Below are positions 53,147-63,127 of a stretch of 64,000 bases of DNA, one piece after another. This DNA is from Oceanithermus profundus DSM 14977 (GTDB lineage Bacteria > Deinococcota > Deinococci > Deinococcales > Marinithermaceae). The notes beneath the pieces were generated by a model that had not been told where the DNA came from, ran no database searches, and saw only the letters and a list, made by a program, of their open reading frames with translations. The DNA is taken from contig NC_014761.1 of the NCBI RefSeq assembly GCF_000183745.1, positions 496,001 through 560,000 of the forward strand, given 5' to 3'. Position 1 is the stretch's first letter. Every line of letters begins with the position of its first letter. The position numbers and the translations under genes are program-made.

Positions 53147-53179
53147 CTTTACAGAAGCTTTACCTTATGGGTCCACCCT
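53147..53179 (+). promoter_or_regulatory. PhoB-type direct-repeat promoter of the SHOCT/two-component operon
   Basis: CTTTAC (53147-53152), AGAAG, CTTTAC (53158-53163), then 10 nt and CACCCT (53174-53179) in the -10 place. The 11-nt period suits an OmpR/PhoB-family dimer. Located before an operon that encodes such a regulator, so likely autoregulatory. Confidence 0.7.
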
Positions 53180-53200
53180 TGATCCAGGAGGTGATGAGGC

Positions 53201-53443
53201 ATGATGGGATGGTGGGGACCTGGATACGGCATGGGCGGTTGGGGCTTCCTCTGGGGTCTGCTCTGGTTCGCGCTGATCGCCTGGGGGATCTACACCCTGG
53301 TGAAGATCGCCGGCCAGGGGGGTTTCCAGGGCGGAAGCTCCAGCAAGCAGGACGCGGCCCTCGAGCTCTTGCGCAAGCGCTACGCGCGGGGTGAGATCGA
53401 CAAGGAGACCTACGAACGCATGAAGCGCGACCTGGAGGAGTAA
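53201..53443 (+). CDS. SHOCT-domain small membrane protein
   Basis: 80 residues, strong AGGAGGTGATG before the ATG. Met/Gly/Trp-rich start (MMGWWGPGYGMGGWGF) and one membrane helix (about 17-36), then a C-terminal SHOCT motif: DAALELLRKRYARGEIDKE and YERMKRDLEE. SHOCT domains are short helical tails that mediate oligomerisation. The Met-rich N-terminus could bind copper(I). First gene of the two-component operon; a similar gene lies at 60569. Confidence 0.85.
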   Translation: MMGWWGPGYGMGGWGFLWGLLWFALIAWGIYTLVKIAGQGGFQGGSSSKQDAALELLRKRYARGEIDKETYERMKRDLEE

Positions 53444-53446
53444 GGT

Positions 53447-54115
53447 TTGGCCAAGATCCTGATCGTGGACGACGACCCGGCGATCCGGGAGATCCTCCGG
53501 GCCTACCTGAGCCACGAGGGCTACGAACTCAGCGAGGCGGCCGACGGGGTGAGCGCTCTGGCGCTCGCCCCCGCCGCCGACCTGGTGGTCCTCGACCTGA
53601 TGCTGCCCGAGATGGACGGGCTGGAGGTGGCGCGGCACCTGCGGCGCGACTTCCCCGAACTGCCCATCCTGATGCTGACGGCGCGCGGCGAGGAGGAGGA
53701 GCGGGTGCGCGGCTTCGAAGAGGGCGCCGACGACTACGTGACCAAGCCCTTCAGCCCGCGTGAGCTGGTGGCGCGGGTGCGCGCCCTGCTCAGACGTTCC
53801 GGCATCCACGACCGCCTCGTCTACGGCGATCTGGAGATCGTGCCGGGGAGCCGCGAGGTCTACCTCGCGGGGCGGCCGGTGGAGCTCTCCAAGCTCGAGT
53901 TCGACCTGCTGCTCACGCTGGCGCAGCACCCGGGCATGGTCTTCAGTCGCGAGCGGCTCCTGGAGCGCGTCTGGGGCAGCGACTTCTTCGGGGTCGAGCG
54001 CGTGGTGGACGTGCACGTCGCCTCGCTGCGCAAGCGCCTGGGCGACGAGCCCGACCGGCCCCGTTTCATCGAGACGGTGCGCGGCGTGGGGTATCGTTTC
54101 AAAGAGACGGAATGA
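53447..54115 (+). CDS. OmpR/PhoB-family response regulator
   Basis: 222 residues, TTG start 3 nt after the SHOCT gene. Receiver domain with IVDDDPAIREI, phosphorylation Asp50 in VVLDLMLPEMDG, and KPF; winged-helix DNA-binding domain ending in VDVHVASLRKRLGDEP and RGVGYRF. Likely the factor that reads the five direct-repeat promoters. Overlaps the sensor kinase by 4 nt. Confidence 0.95.
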   Translation: MAKILIVDDDPAIREILRAYLSHEGYELSEAADGVSALALAPAADLVVLDLMLPEMDGLEVARHLRRDFPELPILMLTARGEEEERVRGFEEGADDYVTKPFSPRELVARVRALLRRSGIHDRLVYGDLEIVPGSREVYLAGRPVELSKLEFDLLLTLAQHPGMVFSRERLLERVWGSDFFGVERVVDVHVASLRKRLGDEPDRPRFIETVRGVGYRFKETE

Positions 54116-55221
54116 AGCTCTTCCCCAAGCTGTTCCTCAGCCACCTGCTCGTCGTGATCATCGCCGAGGCGGCGGTCTTCGTGCTGGTCGAGTTCTTTGC
54201 GCCGCGTTTCTTCGCCGAGCACGTGGCCCGCATGGTGCACATGGTGCAGATGATGGGGATGGGGCCGATGGCCGAGAGCCTGCGGATCGACCTGGAAAAC
54301 GGGCTTTCGGCCACGCTCACCTCGGCGCTGCTGGTTTCGCTGCCGCTCTCGGCGCTGCTGGCGGCGGTGACCGCCTACTGGGTCAGCCGCCGGCTGGCCC
54401 GCACCGCCAACCTGCTGGCCTCGGGCAGCCGCCGCATGGCGAGCGGCGACTACCGGCTCCGCCTCCCCGTCGAGGGCCGCGACGAGCTCGCCGAGCTGGC
54501 CGTGCACTTCAACAACCTGGCCGAGGCGCTCGACCGGGTGGAGCAGAGCCGGGTCGAGCTGATCGGAAACGTGGCCCACGAGCTGCGCACCCCGCTGGCG
54601 GCGCTGCAGGGCTACGCCGAGGCGGCGGCCGACGGGGTGATGCCGCCGGAGGCGGTGGCGCGCGCGATCAACCGCGAGGTGGCGGCGATGCGCCGCCTCG
54701 TCGAGGACCTTTCCCTGGTTTCCCGGGTCGAGGCGGGCTCGGTCGAGCTGGAGCTGGCGCCCCACGACCCCGCAGTGCTGGTCCGCGCCGCGCACGACCG
54801 CTTCGCCAGCGTCTTCGCCTCTGCGGGGGTGGAGCTGCGGCTCGAGCTGCCCGCGGAGGGGTTGCCGCCGGTGCGGGCCGACGCCGGCCGCACCGACCAG
54901 GTGCTCGCCAACCTGCTCTCGAACGCCCTGCGCCACACCCCCGAGGGGGGCACGGTCATCCTCCGGCTCGAGCCCCAGGGCGGCTTCGCCCGCTTCTGCG
55001 TGCGGGACACCGGTCCGGGAATCCCCGAGGCCTACCAGCAGCGCATCTTCGAGCGCTTCTTCCGGCTCGACGCCGCCCGCAGCCGCGGTTCCGGCGGCAG
55101 CGGGGTGGGGCTCACGGTCTCGAAGGGGCTGGTCGAGGCCATGGGTGGGCAGATCGAGCTGCGCTCCCGCCCCGGCGAGGGCGCCGAGTTCTGCTTCACC
55201 CTGCCCTTTGCAAAAGCTTAA
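54112..55221 (+). CDS. Sensor histidine kinase
   Basis: 369 residues. Two membrane helices (about 7-28 and 65-88) enclose a small periplasmic loop of only 35 residues that is Met- and His-rich (HVARMVHMVQMMGMGPM), a good copper(I)-binding candidate. Then HAMP, HisKA with NVAHELRTPL (His156), and HATPase with NLLSNALRHT, DTGPGIPE and GGSGVGLTVSKGL. The sequence thus suggests metal sensing at the outer face. Confidence 0.93.
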   Translation: MKLFPKLFLSHLLVVIIAEAAVFVLVEFFAPRFFAEHVARMVHMVQMMGMGPMAESLRIDLENGLSATLTSALLVSLPLSALLAAVTAYWVSRRLARTANLLASGSRRMASGDYRLRLPVEGRDELAELAVHFNNLAEALDRVEQSRVELIGNVAHELRTPLAALQGYAEAAADGVMPPEAVARAINREVAAMRRLVEDLSLVSRVEAGSVELELAPHDPAVLVRAAHDRFASVFASAGVELRLELPAEGLPPVRADAGRTDQVLANLLSNALRHTPEGGTVILRLEPQGGFARFCVRDTGPGIPEAYQQRIFERFFRLDAARSRGSGGSGVGLTVSKGLVEAMGGQIELRSRPGEGAEFCFTLPFAKA

Positions 55222-61940: not shown

Positions 61941-62602
61941 GCCTGTTGGACCGCATGAGCCGGTTGATCCGCGCCAACCTGAACGACCTGCTGCGCCGGG
62001 CCGAAGATCCGGAGAAGGTGCTGCGCCAGGCGCTGGAAGACATGAAGTCGGCCTACCGATCCGCCAAGAGCGAGGTCGCCGGGGTGATGGCCGAGGTGCG
62101 CGGGATGCAGCGCGAGGCCGCCGGCTACCTGGAGATGGAGACGGTGTGGCGCGACAAGGCCAAGCGCGCCCTGGCCGAGGGGCAGGAGGAGCTGGCGCGC
62201 GAGGCGCTCAAGCGGGCGCGGCAGGCGCGCGCCCTCGCCGACGACCTGAACGCCCAGGCGCAGGAGCAGGAGCAGATTGTGGCGCGCCTGCGGCAGCGGC
62301 TGGCGGCGCTGGAAGCGAAGATCACCGAGGCGCGCGCCCAGCTGAAGCAGCTCAGCGCCCGCCAGAAGAGCGTGCAGGCGGCCGAGTCGGTGCGACGGGT
62401 GAGCGCCCGCCTGGAGGCGCACCCCGCGGCCGAGGCCTTCGCCGAGATGGCCGAGCGGGTGGCCCAGATGGAAGACCGCCATCAGGCCCTCCTCGAGCTG
62501 GACGGCGAAGACGAGCTGGCCGCGCAGCTGGAGGAGCTGGCCGACCCCGCGGTCGAGGCCGAACTCGAAGAGCTGAAGCGTGAGCTGGAGGCGTCGTCGT
62601 GA
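61937..62602 (+). CDS. pspA: PspA/IM30-family membrane-stress protein
   Basis: 221 residues, ATG at 61937 with GGAGG upstream. SLLDRMSRLIRANLNDLLRR is the amphipathic PspA start, followed by DPEKVLRQALEDMKSAY and a long helical hairpin. PspA oligomers bind and stabilise damaged membranes. The Psp regulators pspF, pspB and pspC are absent; the neighbours here are quite different from proteobacterial psp operons. Confidence 0.93.
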   Translation: MSLLDRMSRLIRANLNDLLRRAEDPEKVLRQALEDMKSAYRSAKSEVAGVMAEVRGMQREAAGYLEMETVWRDKAKRALAEGQEELAREALKRARQARALADDLNAQAQEQEQIVARLRQRLAALEAKITEARAQLKQLSARQKSVQAAESVRRVSARLEAHPAAEAFAEMAERVAQMEDRHQALLELDGEDELAAQLEELADPAVEAELEELKRELEASS

Positions 62603-63042
62603 GCCGCTGGGTGGTGGCCGCGCTGGTCCTCGGCGTGCTCGGCCTCGCCGTGTGGGTGGTGGCGGGCCGGAACACCGGGGCGGCGGCCCTTCCTGAGGTG
62701 CCGGCGGGCGGCTACGCCGAGATCACCGTGGGCACCCTCGGCAAGCTGCTGGAGACGCCCGAGGAGGAGCGCGGCTTCGTCCTTCTCAACGTGCACGTTC
62801 CCTATGCGGGGGAGATCCCGGGCACCGACCTGGTCCTCCCCTACAACCGGCTGCCCGAGTTCGCGGACCGGCTCCCCCAGGACAAAGCGACGCCCATCGT
62901 GCTCTACTGCCGCAGCGGGGCGATGAGCCGGATGGCCGCGAGGACCCTGGTGGAGATGGGGTACACGCGCGTCTACGACGTGCCCGGGGGCATGAACGCC
63001 TGGCGCGCCAGCGGCGGCGCCCTCGTCTTCGTGAAGCGCTGA
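62599..63042 (+). CDS. Membrane-anchored rhodanese-domain protein
   Basis: 147 residues, GTG start in the pspA stop codon. N-terminal membrane helix (about 5-24), then a rhodanese domain with LLNVHVPYAGEIPGT and active-site loop YCRSGAMSRMAA (Cys nucleophile). The domain faces outside if the anchor is uncleaved. Rhodanese PspE also belongs to the E. coli psp operon, an interesting parallel. Confidence 0.9.
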   Translation: MSRWVVAALVLGVLGLAVWVVAGRNTGAAALPEVPAGGYAEITVGTLGKLLETPEEERGFVLLNVHVPYAGEIPGTDLVLPYNRLPEFADRLPQDKATPIVLYCRSGAMSRMAARTLVEMGYTRVYDVPGGMNAWRASGGALVFVKR

Positions 63043-63064
63043 ACCCCGCACCCTCCCGTGCGCA

Positions 63065-63090
63065 CCCGACCCGGCGGCCGCCGGGTCGGG
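63065..63090 (+). terminator. Strong hairpin after the PspA-rhodanese operon
   Basis: 10-bp arms CCCGACCCGG/CCGGGTCGGG around a self-complementary CGGCCG, 22 nt after the stop; followed by CCTCGTTT. Confidence 0.75.
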
Positions 63091-63094
63091 CCTC

Positions 63095-63127
63095 GTTTAC
63101 CTCCTGTTAACCTCGCCGCCCCAGGCT
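63095..63127 (+). promoter_or_regulatory. PhoB-type direct-repeat promoter of the lipoprotein gene
   Basis: GTTTAC (63095-63100), CTCCT, GTTAAC (63106-63111), 10 nt, then CAGGCT (63122-63127) in the -10 place. Immediately after, a hairpin CCAGGCT-GT-AGCCTGG (63121-63136) covers part of the GGAGG ribosome site (63135-63139). Confidence 0.6.

What the first reader, a model, noticed from the sequence alone, without database searches (positions are those of the whole stretch)
53147..63127. A shared PhoB-like direct-repeat promoter defines a regulon around the two-component system
Seen in the sequence: CTTTAC-N5-CTTTAC (53147), CTTTGC-N5-CTTAAC (55206), CTTTAC-N5-CTTTAC (60116), GTTTAC-N5-GTTAAC (63095). 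In every case a -10-like hexamer (CACCCT, TAACCT, TTCAAT, CAGGCT) begins exactly 10 nt after the repeat. Known: PhoB and related OmpR-family activators bind 11-nt direct repeats that replace the -35 box at this spacing. Inference: the response regulator at 53447 activates its own operon, the CueP-oxidase operon, the DUF302-PspA operon and the lipoprotein gene.
Basis: partly seen in the sequence, partly recalled or inferred. Interest (0 to 1): 0.82.

Follow-up and report, generated by a model that had tools for sequence, protein, structure and literature searches.

The report
Probable copper-response promoter box
A short repeated DNA signal marks the promoters of a copper-detoxification gene set in a heat-loving bacterium and many of its relatives and very probably binds the neighbouring regulator, but one of the four copies first reported belongs to a different, adjacent regulator.

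Summary
The window lies in a genome whose size matches Oceanithermus profundus. Exact CTTTAC-N5-CTTTAC occurs three times in 2.44 Mb, all within 16 kb; the third, beyond the window, precedes a Met/Gly-rich protein and CopA. Across 111 genomes of the order the refined pattern CTTTAC-N5-CTTWAC-N10-YANNNT occurs 110 times against 1 reversed control, in 40 of 49 genomes with an orthologue of the 53447 regulator (RR1) and 9 of 62 without. The -10 lies exactly 10 nt after the repeat in 79 of 94 non-redundant sites. A fifth own-genome site precedes a cupredoxin gene. So 53147, 55206 and 60116 are very probably RR1 operators of a copper regulon.

The fourth repeat (63095) differs. GTTTAC-N5-GTTAAC has two exact copies in the genome; the second heads a gene run holding another two-component system (RR2). 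In this family that box class lies before RR2 genes, also in genomes without an RR1 orthologue, so the lipoprotein gene is better assigned to RR2.

Binding, copper induction and start sites are untested. New member of a known kind (CiaR/PhoB geometry, CopRS-like role).

The parts
53147..53163 (+). class-1 box CTTTAC-AGAAG-CTTTAC (predicted RR1 operator), promoter of SHOCT-RR1-HK1
   Evidence: one of 3 exact copies in the genome; conserved upstream of many RR1 orthologues
53174..53179 (+). -10-like CACCCT, 10 nt after the box
   Evidence: gap of 10 nt in 79 of 94 sites
53201..53443 (+). SHOCT-domain small protein, first gene of the operon
53447..54115 (+). RR1, OmpR/PhoB-type response regulator, the predicted binder of class-1 boxes
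   Evidence: Response_reg, Trans_reg_C; orthologues
54112..55221 (+). HK1, histidine kinase with a short His/Met-containing external loop (loop by eye)
55206..55222 (+). class-1 box CTTTGC-AAAAG-CTTAAC, overlaps the 3' end of HK1; promoter of CueP-oxidase operon
   Evidence: boxes before CueP, MCO or DUF3105 in relatives
55233..55238 (+). -10-like TAACCT
55246..55809 (+). CueP periplasmic copper protein
55796..57238 (+). multicopper oxidase
57238..57849 (+). DUF3105 protein
57894..57913 (.). palindrome CCCACCCC-N4-GGGGTGGG, candidate CsoR operator before the P-type ATPase (not part of the RR1 box system)
   Evidence: the third exact copy lies beside a CsoR-family gene
57934..60093 (+). CopB-like P-type ATPase
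   Evidence: CPH motif read in the ORF
60116..60132 (+). class-1 box CTTTAC-CGAAG-CTTTAC, promoter of DUF302-PspA operon
60143..60148 (+). -10-like TTCAAT
   Evidence: same in G010 and G011
60168..60569 (+). DUF302 protein
60569..60760 (+). second SHOCT-like protein (25.1 bits, below the Pfam cut-off of 27)
60763..61344 (+). uncharacterised ORF, coiled-coil-like by eye
61341..61940 (+). DOMON-domain protein
61937..62602 (+). PspA/IM30 protein
62599..63042 (+). rhodanese-like protein
63095..63111 (+). class-2 box GTTTAC-CTCCT-GTTAAC, predicted operator of the second regulator RR2, not RR1
63122..63127 (+). -10-like CAGGCT
63146..64000 (+). DUF5666 lipoprotein gene, continues past the window end; assigned here to the RR2 regulon

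Best explanation
The class-1 box CTTTAC-N5-CTTWAC is the operator of RR1, the OmpR/PhoB-type regulator encoded at 53447. Two RR1 subunits bind head to tail on the two half-sites, 11 nt apart, where a -35 element would otherwise lie, and recruit RNA polymerase to a -10 (TANNNT-like) that starts 10 nt further on. HK1 senses copper (or a similar metal) outside the membrane and phosphorylates RR1. RR1 then switches on its own SHOCT-RR1-HK1 operon and the envelope copper-detoxification operons: CueP-oxidase-DUF3105, DUF302...PspA-rhodanese, the Met/Gly-rich protein upstream of CopA, and a cupredoxin gene elsewhere. The P-type ATPases carry an additional CsoR-type palindrome. The repeat at 63095 is a separate class (KTTTAC-N5-GTTAAC, same geometry) belonging to the neighbouring two-component system RR2/HK2. 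Shown by computation: sites, geometry, conservation, and the pairing of each class with its regulator gene in this family. Inferred: binding, activation, copper as the signal, operon structure.
For: Exact CTTTAC-N5-CTTTAC occurs only in a 16-kb copper cluster of this genome. The five best own-genome matches to the full pattern (0-1 mismatch) are exactly 53147, 55206, 60116, 565221 and 486063. Order-wide, that pattern has 110 sites in 49 of 111 genomes against 1 reversed-control site. It is present in 40 of 49 RR1+ genomes and 9 of 62 RR1- genomes; in genus g13 20 of 20 against 1 of 7; 70 of 110 sites lie within 15 kb of an RR1 gene. In the fetched loci, exact CTTTAC pairs number 29 at spacer 5 and at most 2 at any other spacer from 0 to 15. 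Box at <=2 mismatches within 450 bp upstream of 32 of 52 RR1 orthologues, reversed-hexamer control 0 of 52. Gap to the -10 is 10 nt in 79 of 94 sites, at most 6 at any other gap from 0 to 26. Copper genes follow the boxes in many relatives. The 486063 site precedes a cupredoxin-domain gene and recurs at 1 mismatch in G017. Class 2 separates from class 1: RR2 genes have it, RR1 genes do not, also where RR1 is missing.
Against: 20 of 52 RR1 orthologue upstream regions lack the box at <=2 mismatches, including all 9 loci where DUF3105 precedes RR1 and the 4 orthologues of f2 and f5. 9 genomes without RR1 have the full pattern. In G022, G025 and G034 a similar box lies about 19 nt before a different response-regulator gene, so such half-sites are not exclusive to RR1. 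Spacers 2 and 10 also gave 18 of 52 loci at <=2 mismatches; I did not dissect these. Genomes are related, so counts are not independent. The link is not significant in f1 (6 of 10 against 0 of 4), g12 (10 of 11 against 4 of 7) or f5 (0 of 3 against 3 of 36). The cupredoxin site has no counterpart in G009, and 11 of 14 family genomes have no homologue at E <= 1e-15. No classical promoter was found in 53000-64000, but shuffles expect only 0.3, so this says little. No binding, expression or copper data.
Confidence: 0.8

Rival explanations
1. One reading: one regulator (RR1) controls all four promoters, including the lipoprotein gene at 63146, and tolerates G for C at the first base of each half-site.
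For: Same spacing and same distance to the -10 in all four; the 63095 site is only 2 mismatches from the class-1 pattern.
Against: Both exact class-2 copies in the genome lie beside the RR2 gene run. In family f1 class 2 at <=1 mismatch lies before RR2 in 8 of 10 and before RR1 in 0 of 10; class 1 at <=1 mismatch lies before RR1 in 8 of 10 and before RR2 in 0 of 10 (class 2 was defined after seeing the sites). G012 (98% complete), G020 (84%) and G021 (76%) have RR2 and class 2 but no RR1 orthologue.
Confidence: 0.1
2. The class-1 boxes are bound by another OmpR-type regulator or a different protein, and RR1 is only a neighbour and target.
For: Similar boxes lie before other response-regulator genes in G022, G025 and G034; 9 RR1- genomes have the full pattern.
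Against: Co-occurrence with RR1 within genus g13 (20 of 20 against 1 of 7) and proximity of 70 of 110 sites to RR1. The CsoR-type motif in the same cluster is a different, palindromic sequence.
Confidence: 0.12
3. The repeats are chance or coding-sequence conservation without function.
For: The 55206 box overlaps the end of the HK1 gene; matches with up to 2 mismatches are only twice the control in this genome.
Against: 110 against 1 control sites order-wide; the -10 held at 10 nt in 79 of 94 sites; 53147, 60116, 63095 and 565221 are intergenic.
Confidence: 0.03

Closest known systems
CiaR of streptococci (TTTAAG-N5-TTTAAG)
   Same: Two hexamers separated by 5 nt and a -10 placed 10 nt after the second hexamer: this search set-up is stated in PMC3091779 (passages read). 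Both regulators carry a similar recognition helix: VVEVYVSKVRKKL as printed there, VVDVHVASLRKRL in RR1.
   Different: Hexamer is CTTTAC/CTTWAC rather than TTTAAG; targets here are copper genes; different phylum.
PhoB and the pho box
   Same: Two 11-nt direct repeats bound head to tail (PMC4415409, passages read). That the pho box takes the place of the -35 at a fixed distance from the -10 is recalled, not read.
   Different: E. coli motif is CTGTCAT; no phosphate genes among the predicted targets.
CopRS of Corynebacterium glutamicum
   Same: Two-component system beside a multicopper oxidase and CopB, with a perfect direct repeat as operator (PMC3140484, passages read).
   Different: 9-nt repeats with a 2-nt linker (TGAAGATTT-ga-TGAAGATTT) instead of 6 + 5; no SHOCT, CueP or PspA genes in the passages read.
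CopRS of Synechocystis
   Same: Copper two-component system controlling its own operon and an export operon (start of the abstract of PMC4335983 in the listing).
   Different: Operator sequence not read here; targets are an RND exporter and CopM.
CusRS of Escherichia coli
   Same: Two-component system with a role in copper homeostasis (named in PMC3140484, passages read).
   Different: Its operator is, as I recall, an inverted repeat; not tested here.

Membership tests
OmpR/PhoB-family response regulator (RR1) | Receiver domain plus winged-helix Trans_reg_C domain | tested here: met
   Pfam Response_reg 1.7e-32 and Trans_reg_C 2.3e-29; nearest solved chains MtrA, RpaA, RegX3
PhoB/CiaR-type activator promoter | Direct repeat with 11-nt period | tested here: met
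PhoB/CiaR-type activator promoter | -10 at a fixed short distance (10 nt) after the repeat | tested here: met
   gap 10 in 79 of 94
PhoB/CiaR-type activator promoter | Repeat in place of a -35 element | tested here: inconclusive
   no TTGACA/TATAAT-type promoter at >=9 of 12 in 53000-64000, but only 0.3 expected by chance
PhoB/CiaR-type activator promoter | Binding by the phosphorylated regulator and activation | not testable with these tools
   needs protein and transcripts
PhoB (Pho regulon) itself | Pho-box sequence and phosphate-scavenging targets | tested here: not met
   half-site CTTTAC, predicted targets are copper genes; E. coli motif CTGTCAT from PMC4415409
Copper two-component system (CopRS/CusRS type) | Linked copper-detoxification genes sharing the operator | tested here: met
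   CueP, multicopper oxidase, CopB, CopA region, cupredoxin; in relatives
Copper two-component system (CopRS/CusRS type) | Metal-binding periplasmic sensor loop in the kinase | tested here: inconclusive
   short loop with His and Met; the MMG stretch is missing in 7 of 18 orthologues aligned with HK1
Copper two-component system (CopRS/CusRS type) | Induction by copper | not testable with these tools
   no expression data
Single RR1 regulon including 63095 | Same box class before RR1 and before the lipoprotein gene | tested here: not met
   class 2 goes with RR2

The most novel reading that the evidence does not exclude
Two adjacent OmpR-type two-component systems in this family use boxes with identical geometry that differ mainly in the first base of the half-sites (C against G/T), one for copper genes and one for lipoprotein/envelope genes. 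They would form a natural pair for reading the recognition code of this regulator family, and possibly a coupled circuit in which metal stress and envelope state are answered together, layered on a third, CsoR-type, control of the copper pumps.
Probability: 0.3. Interest if true: 0.5.

Novelty: new member of a known kind. Interest (0 to 1): 0.42.

Why it matters
It gives a concrete operator for a probable copper-responsive two-component system in two families of the Thermus group (f1 and f4), precise enough to predict new members; it already pointed to a cupredoxin gene 63 kb away. It also separates two neighbouring regulators that a reading by eye had merged. On whether it is in print: three of ten literature searches aimed at a copper two-component regulon in Thermus (15 of 93 papers listed, 10 of 194, 10 of 118), one at regulons in Thermus and Meiothermus (6 of 6) and one at OmpR-type motifs in Thermus (10 of 26). 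No listed title or abstract start describes one. The library holds only open-licence papers, the lists are partial, and I opened none of the Thermus papers.

Tried and rejected
Single regulon for all four boxes: rejected. Chance: rejected for the set. Named relatives through genome contigs: one useful locus, L263, a Thermaceae MAG contig with the same length (4196) and match position as G013:C59; the other 79 are general OmpR-family regulators at 44-54% identity and were not used. Own-genome sites at 2-3 mismatches (e.g. 1299000, 1151452, 2072115) were not followed. No structure prediction was run.

Sets and omissions: one search used all 52 loci brought in for RR1 orthologues outside the own genome (best hits at E <= 1e-81; a partial 169-residue match in G039:C28 at 71% identity was left out); the own upstream region is. 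One search used 51 of 61 entries (60 loci plus the own stretch), left out L164-L173, scanned only the RR1 strand, allowed 1 mismatch, skipped sites inside tblastn-matched genes and merged identical 37-mers. One search examined the 30 loci given, not all 110 sites. One search examined 9 class-2-like sites; 5 of them preceded lipoprotein-like ORFs. In one search, for G000 and G010 the stretch before the YceI gene was used as the RR2 promoter.
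Full report
What was checked. The four repeats and -10-like hexamers are exactly as described. The window is G000:C2:496001-560000. The assembly has contigs of 2,303,940 and 135,351 bases, the sizes given for the Oceanithermus profundus type strain (PMC3111992, passages read), so I take it to be that organism.

Is it more than chance? Exact CTTTAC-N5-CTTTAC occurs three times in 2.44 Mb, at chromosome 549147, 556116 and 565221, all on the same strand within 16 kb, with 0 reversed-pattern matches (row G000). 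The third, beyond the window at L031:5421, has CACAAT starting exactly 10 nt after the repeat and precedes a Met/Gly-rich protein and a P-type ATPase with two HMA domains. At up to 2 mismatches there are 60 matches against 30 for the reversed pattern, so looser sites need other support.

Relatives. In 111 genomes of the order, exact CTTTAC-N5-CTTTAC has 69 matches against 9 reversed. The 53447 regulator (RR1) has orthologues at 58-98% identity (E <= 1e-81) in 48 other genomes, 52 genes; the next best matches are at about E 1e-74 or weaker. I fetched up to 20 kb around each of the 52. The gene content partly repeats: SHOCT-RR1-HK1, then varying sets of CueP, oxidase, DUF3105, CopB, DUF302, PspA, rhodanese and Met/Gly-rich protein. 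The box recurs before the same genes; in the Thermus-like genus the second half-site is usually CTTAAC, as at 55206. In the fetched loci exact CTTTAC pairs number 29 at spacer 5 (22 on the RR1 strand, 7 on the other) and at most 2 at any other spacer from 0 to 15. Within 450 bp upstream of RR1, 32 of 52 orthologues have CTTTAC-N5-CTTWAC at up to 2 mismatches; the reversed-hexamer control gave 0 of 52. Spacer 5 was the best of spacers 0-12 (32 of 52; next 18 of 52 at spacers 2 and 10, not dissected). The 20 without it include all 9 loci where DUF3105 precedes RR1 and the 4 orthologues of families f2 and f5.

Geometry. Without requiring any -10, 94 non-redundant class-1 sites were collected. YANNNT starts 10 nt after the repeat in 79 of 94 and TANNNT in 61 of 94; no other gap from 0 to 26 exceeds 6 of 94. 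The final T of the hexamer is present in 91 of 94. This matches the CiaR arrangement (hexamer-N5-hexamer-N10, then -10; PMC3091779, passages read). No TTGACA/TATAAT-type promoter at 9 of 12 or better was found in 53000-64000, but shuffles expect only 0.3, so that adds little.

Specificity. The refined pattern CTTTAC-N5-CTTWAC-N10-YANNNT was written, so it is partly shaped on RR1 loci. It has 110 sites in 49 of 111 genomes and 1 reversed-control site. It is present in 40 of 49 genomes with RR1 and 9 of 62 without; in family f4, 34 of 35 against 5 of 15; in genus g13, 20 of 20 against 1 of 7. The link is not significant in f1 (6 of 10 against 0 of 4), g12 (10 of 11 against 4 of 7) or f5 (0 of 3 against 3 of 36). 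70 of 110 sites lie within 15 kb of an RR1 gene (Fisher values there ignore relatedness). The unrefined exact pattern is weaker: 21 of 49 against 16 of 62 (hand count). In the own genome the five best matches to the refined pattern (0-1 mismatch) are 53147, 55206, 60116, 565221 and 486063; at up to 3 mismatches there are 42 matches against 14 for the control. The last of the five lies in front of a cupredoxin-domain gene that begins 29 nt after the -10 and is followed by a membrane protein without a Pfam match. That gene has homologues in 2 of the 13 other family genomes: G017, where the box recurs at 1 mismatch with TAGCCT at the right place, and G009, where it does not. In the 30 loci examined, the first genes behind the sites include CueP-like, oxidase, SHOCT, Met-rich DUF305-like (name recalled) and membrane proteins by eye, but also unrelated proteins and a different response regulator.

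The fourth repeat. GTTTAC-N5-GTTAAC occurs exactly twice in the genome: 63095 and chromosome 560681. The second lies before YceI-cytochrome-unknown ORF-RR2-HK2, again with a -10-like TAGGCT at 10 nt. Order-wide KTTTAC-N5-GTTAAC-N10-YANNNT has 14 sites in 11 of 111 genomes, 12 of them in family f1, reversed control 1. Five lie before RR2 orthologues: 40-41 nt before them in G015, G016, G020 and G021 and 194 nt before in G012 (counted from the first base of the box). In family f1, upstream regions of RR1 have class 1 at up to 1 mismatch in 8 of 10 and class 2 in 0 of 10; those of RR2 have class 2 in 8 of 10 and class 1 in 0 of 10 (class 2 was defined; G017 and G009 are the RR2 misses). G012 (98% complete), G020 (84%) and G021 (76%) have no RR1 orthologue. 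The recognition helices differ (VVDVHVASLRKRL in RR1, IVRVYVHRLRTKL in RR2). Five of 9 further class-2-like sites examined (L072, L076, L077, L080, L081) precede ORFs with lipoprotein-like signal sequences by eye, as does 63095. The lipoprotein gene is therefore better assigned to RR2. RR2 homologues of family f4 mostly lack the class-2 box.

Mechanism. Shown: sites, spacing, conservation, and the pairing of each box class with its regulator gene in family f1. Inferred from the families named: head-to-tail binding, activation through a missing -35, phosphorylation by HK1, copper as the signal. HK1 has a short loop between its first two membrane segments (by eye) with His and Met in many of 18 aligned orthologues; the MMG stretch is missing in 7 of them.

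A third layer. CCCACCCC-N4-GGGGTGGG has three exact copies in the genome: window 57894-57913 before CopB, chromosome 566017 before CopA, and chromosome 2086487, 282 bp upstream of a CsoR-family gene at 2085969-2086205; the sister genome G010 has the same three. This suggests CsoR control of the pumps within the same cluster. Within 2 mismatches the palindrome has 16 places against 5 for the reversed control, so only exact copies are meaningful here. The genome has a second CsoR-family gene at 242918-243148, so which one would bind is open.

Verdict. Observation confirmed. Interpretation right, as far as sequence can tell, for three of four promoters and extended by two; wrong for the fourth. 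Ordinary in kind (PhoB/CiaR geometry, CopRS-like role), but well supported and directly testable.

Noticed in passing
window 57894-57913; chromosome 566017-566036 (L031:6217); chromosome 2086487-2086506: Exact palindrome CCCACCCC-N4-GGGGTGGG before CopB, before CopA and near a CsoR-family gene; candidate CsoR operator, same trio in sister genome G010.
   Followed up: partly
L006:1501-1533 and 1563-2909 (chromosome 486063 onward): Perfect class-1 box with TAGTTT at 10 nt before a cupredoxin-domain gene and a membrane protein; box also at 1 mismatch in G017, not in G009.
   Followed up: partly
L072, L076, L077, L080, L081 (sites at 1501 or 1517): Class-2 boxes in relatives end 27-44 nt before ORFs with lipoprotein-like signals; a possible RR2 lipoprotein regulon.
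   Followed up: partly
L167:3934-3983, minus strand (G002:C303): CTTTAC repeated five times in a row at an 11-nt period (4 overlapping pairs), upstream of an alpha/beta-hydrolase-like ORF by eye.
   Followed up: no
L168:6457-6484 (G083): Three CTTTAC units at an 11-nt period about 1 kb before a response regulator 52% identical to RR1.
   Followed up: no
L184, L191, L054 (site near 1517-1533): CTTTACCCAATCTTTAC-type boxes with a -10 about 19 nt before a different response-regulator gene (about 45% to RR2), so similar half-sites serve other regulators.
   Followed up: no
L036:1501-1533 (chromosome 64913): GTTTGCCTGGCGTTTAC with CACCCT at 10 nt before an Asp-rich ORF with a signal-like start; possible weak class-2 member.
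   Followed up: no
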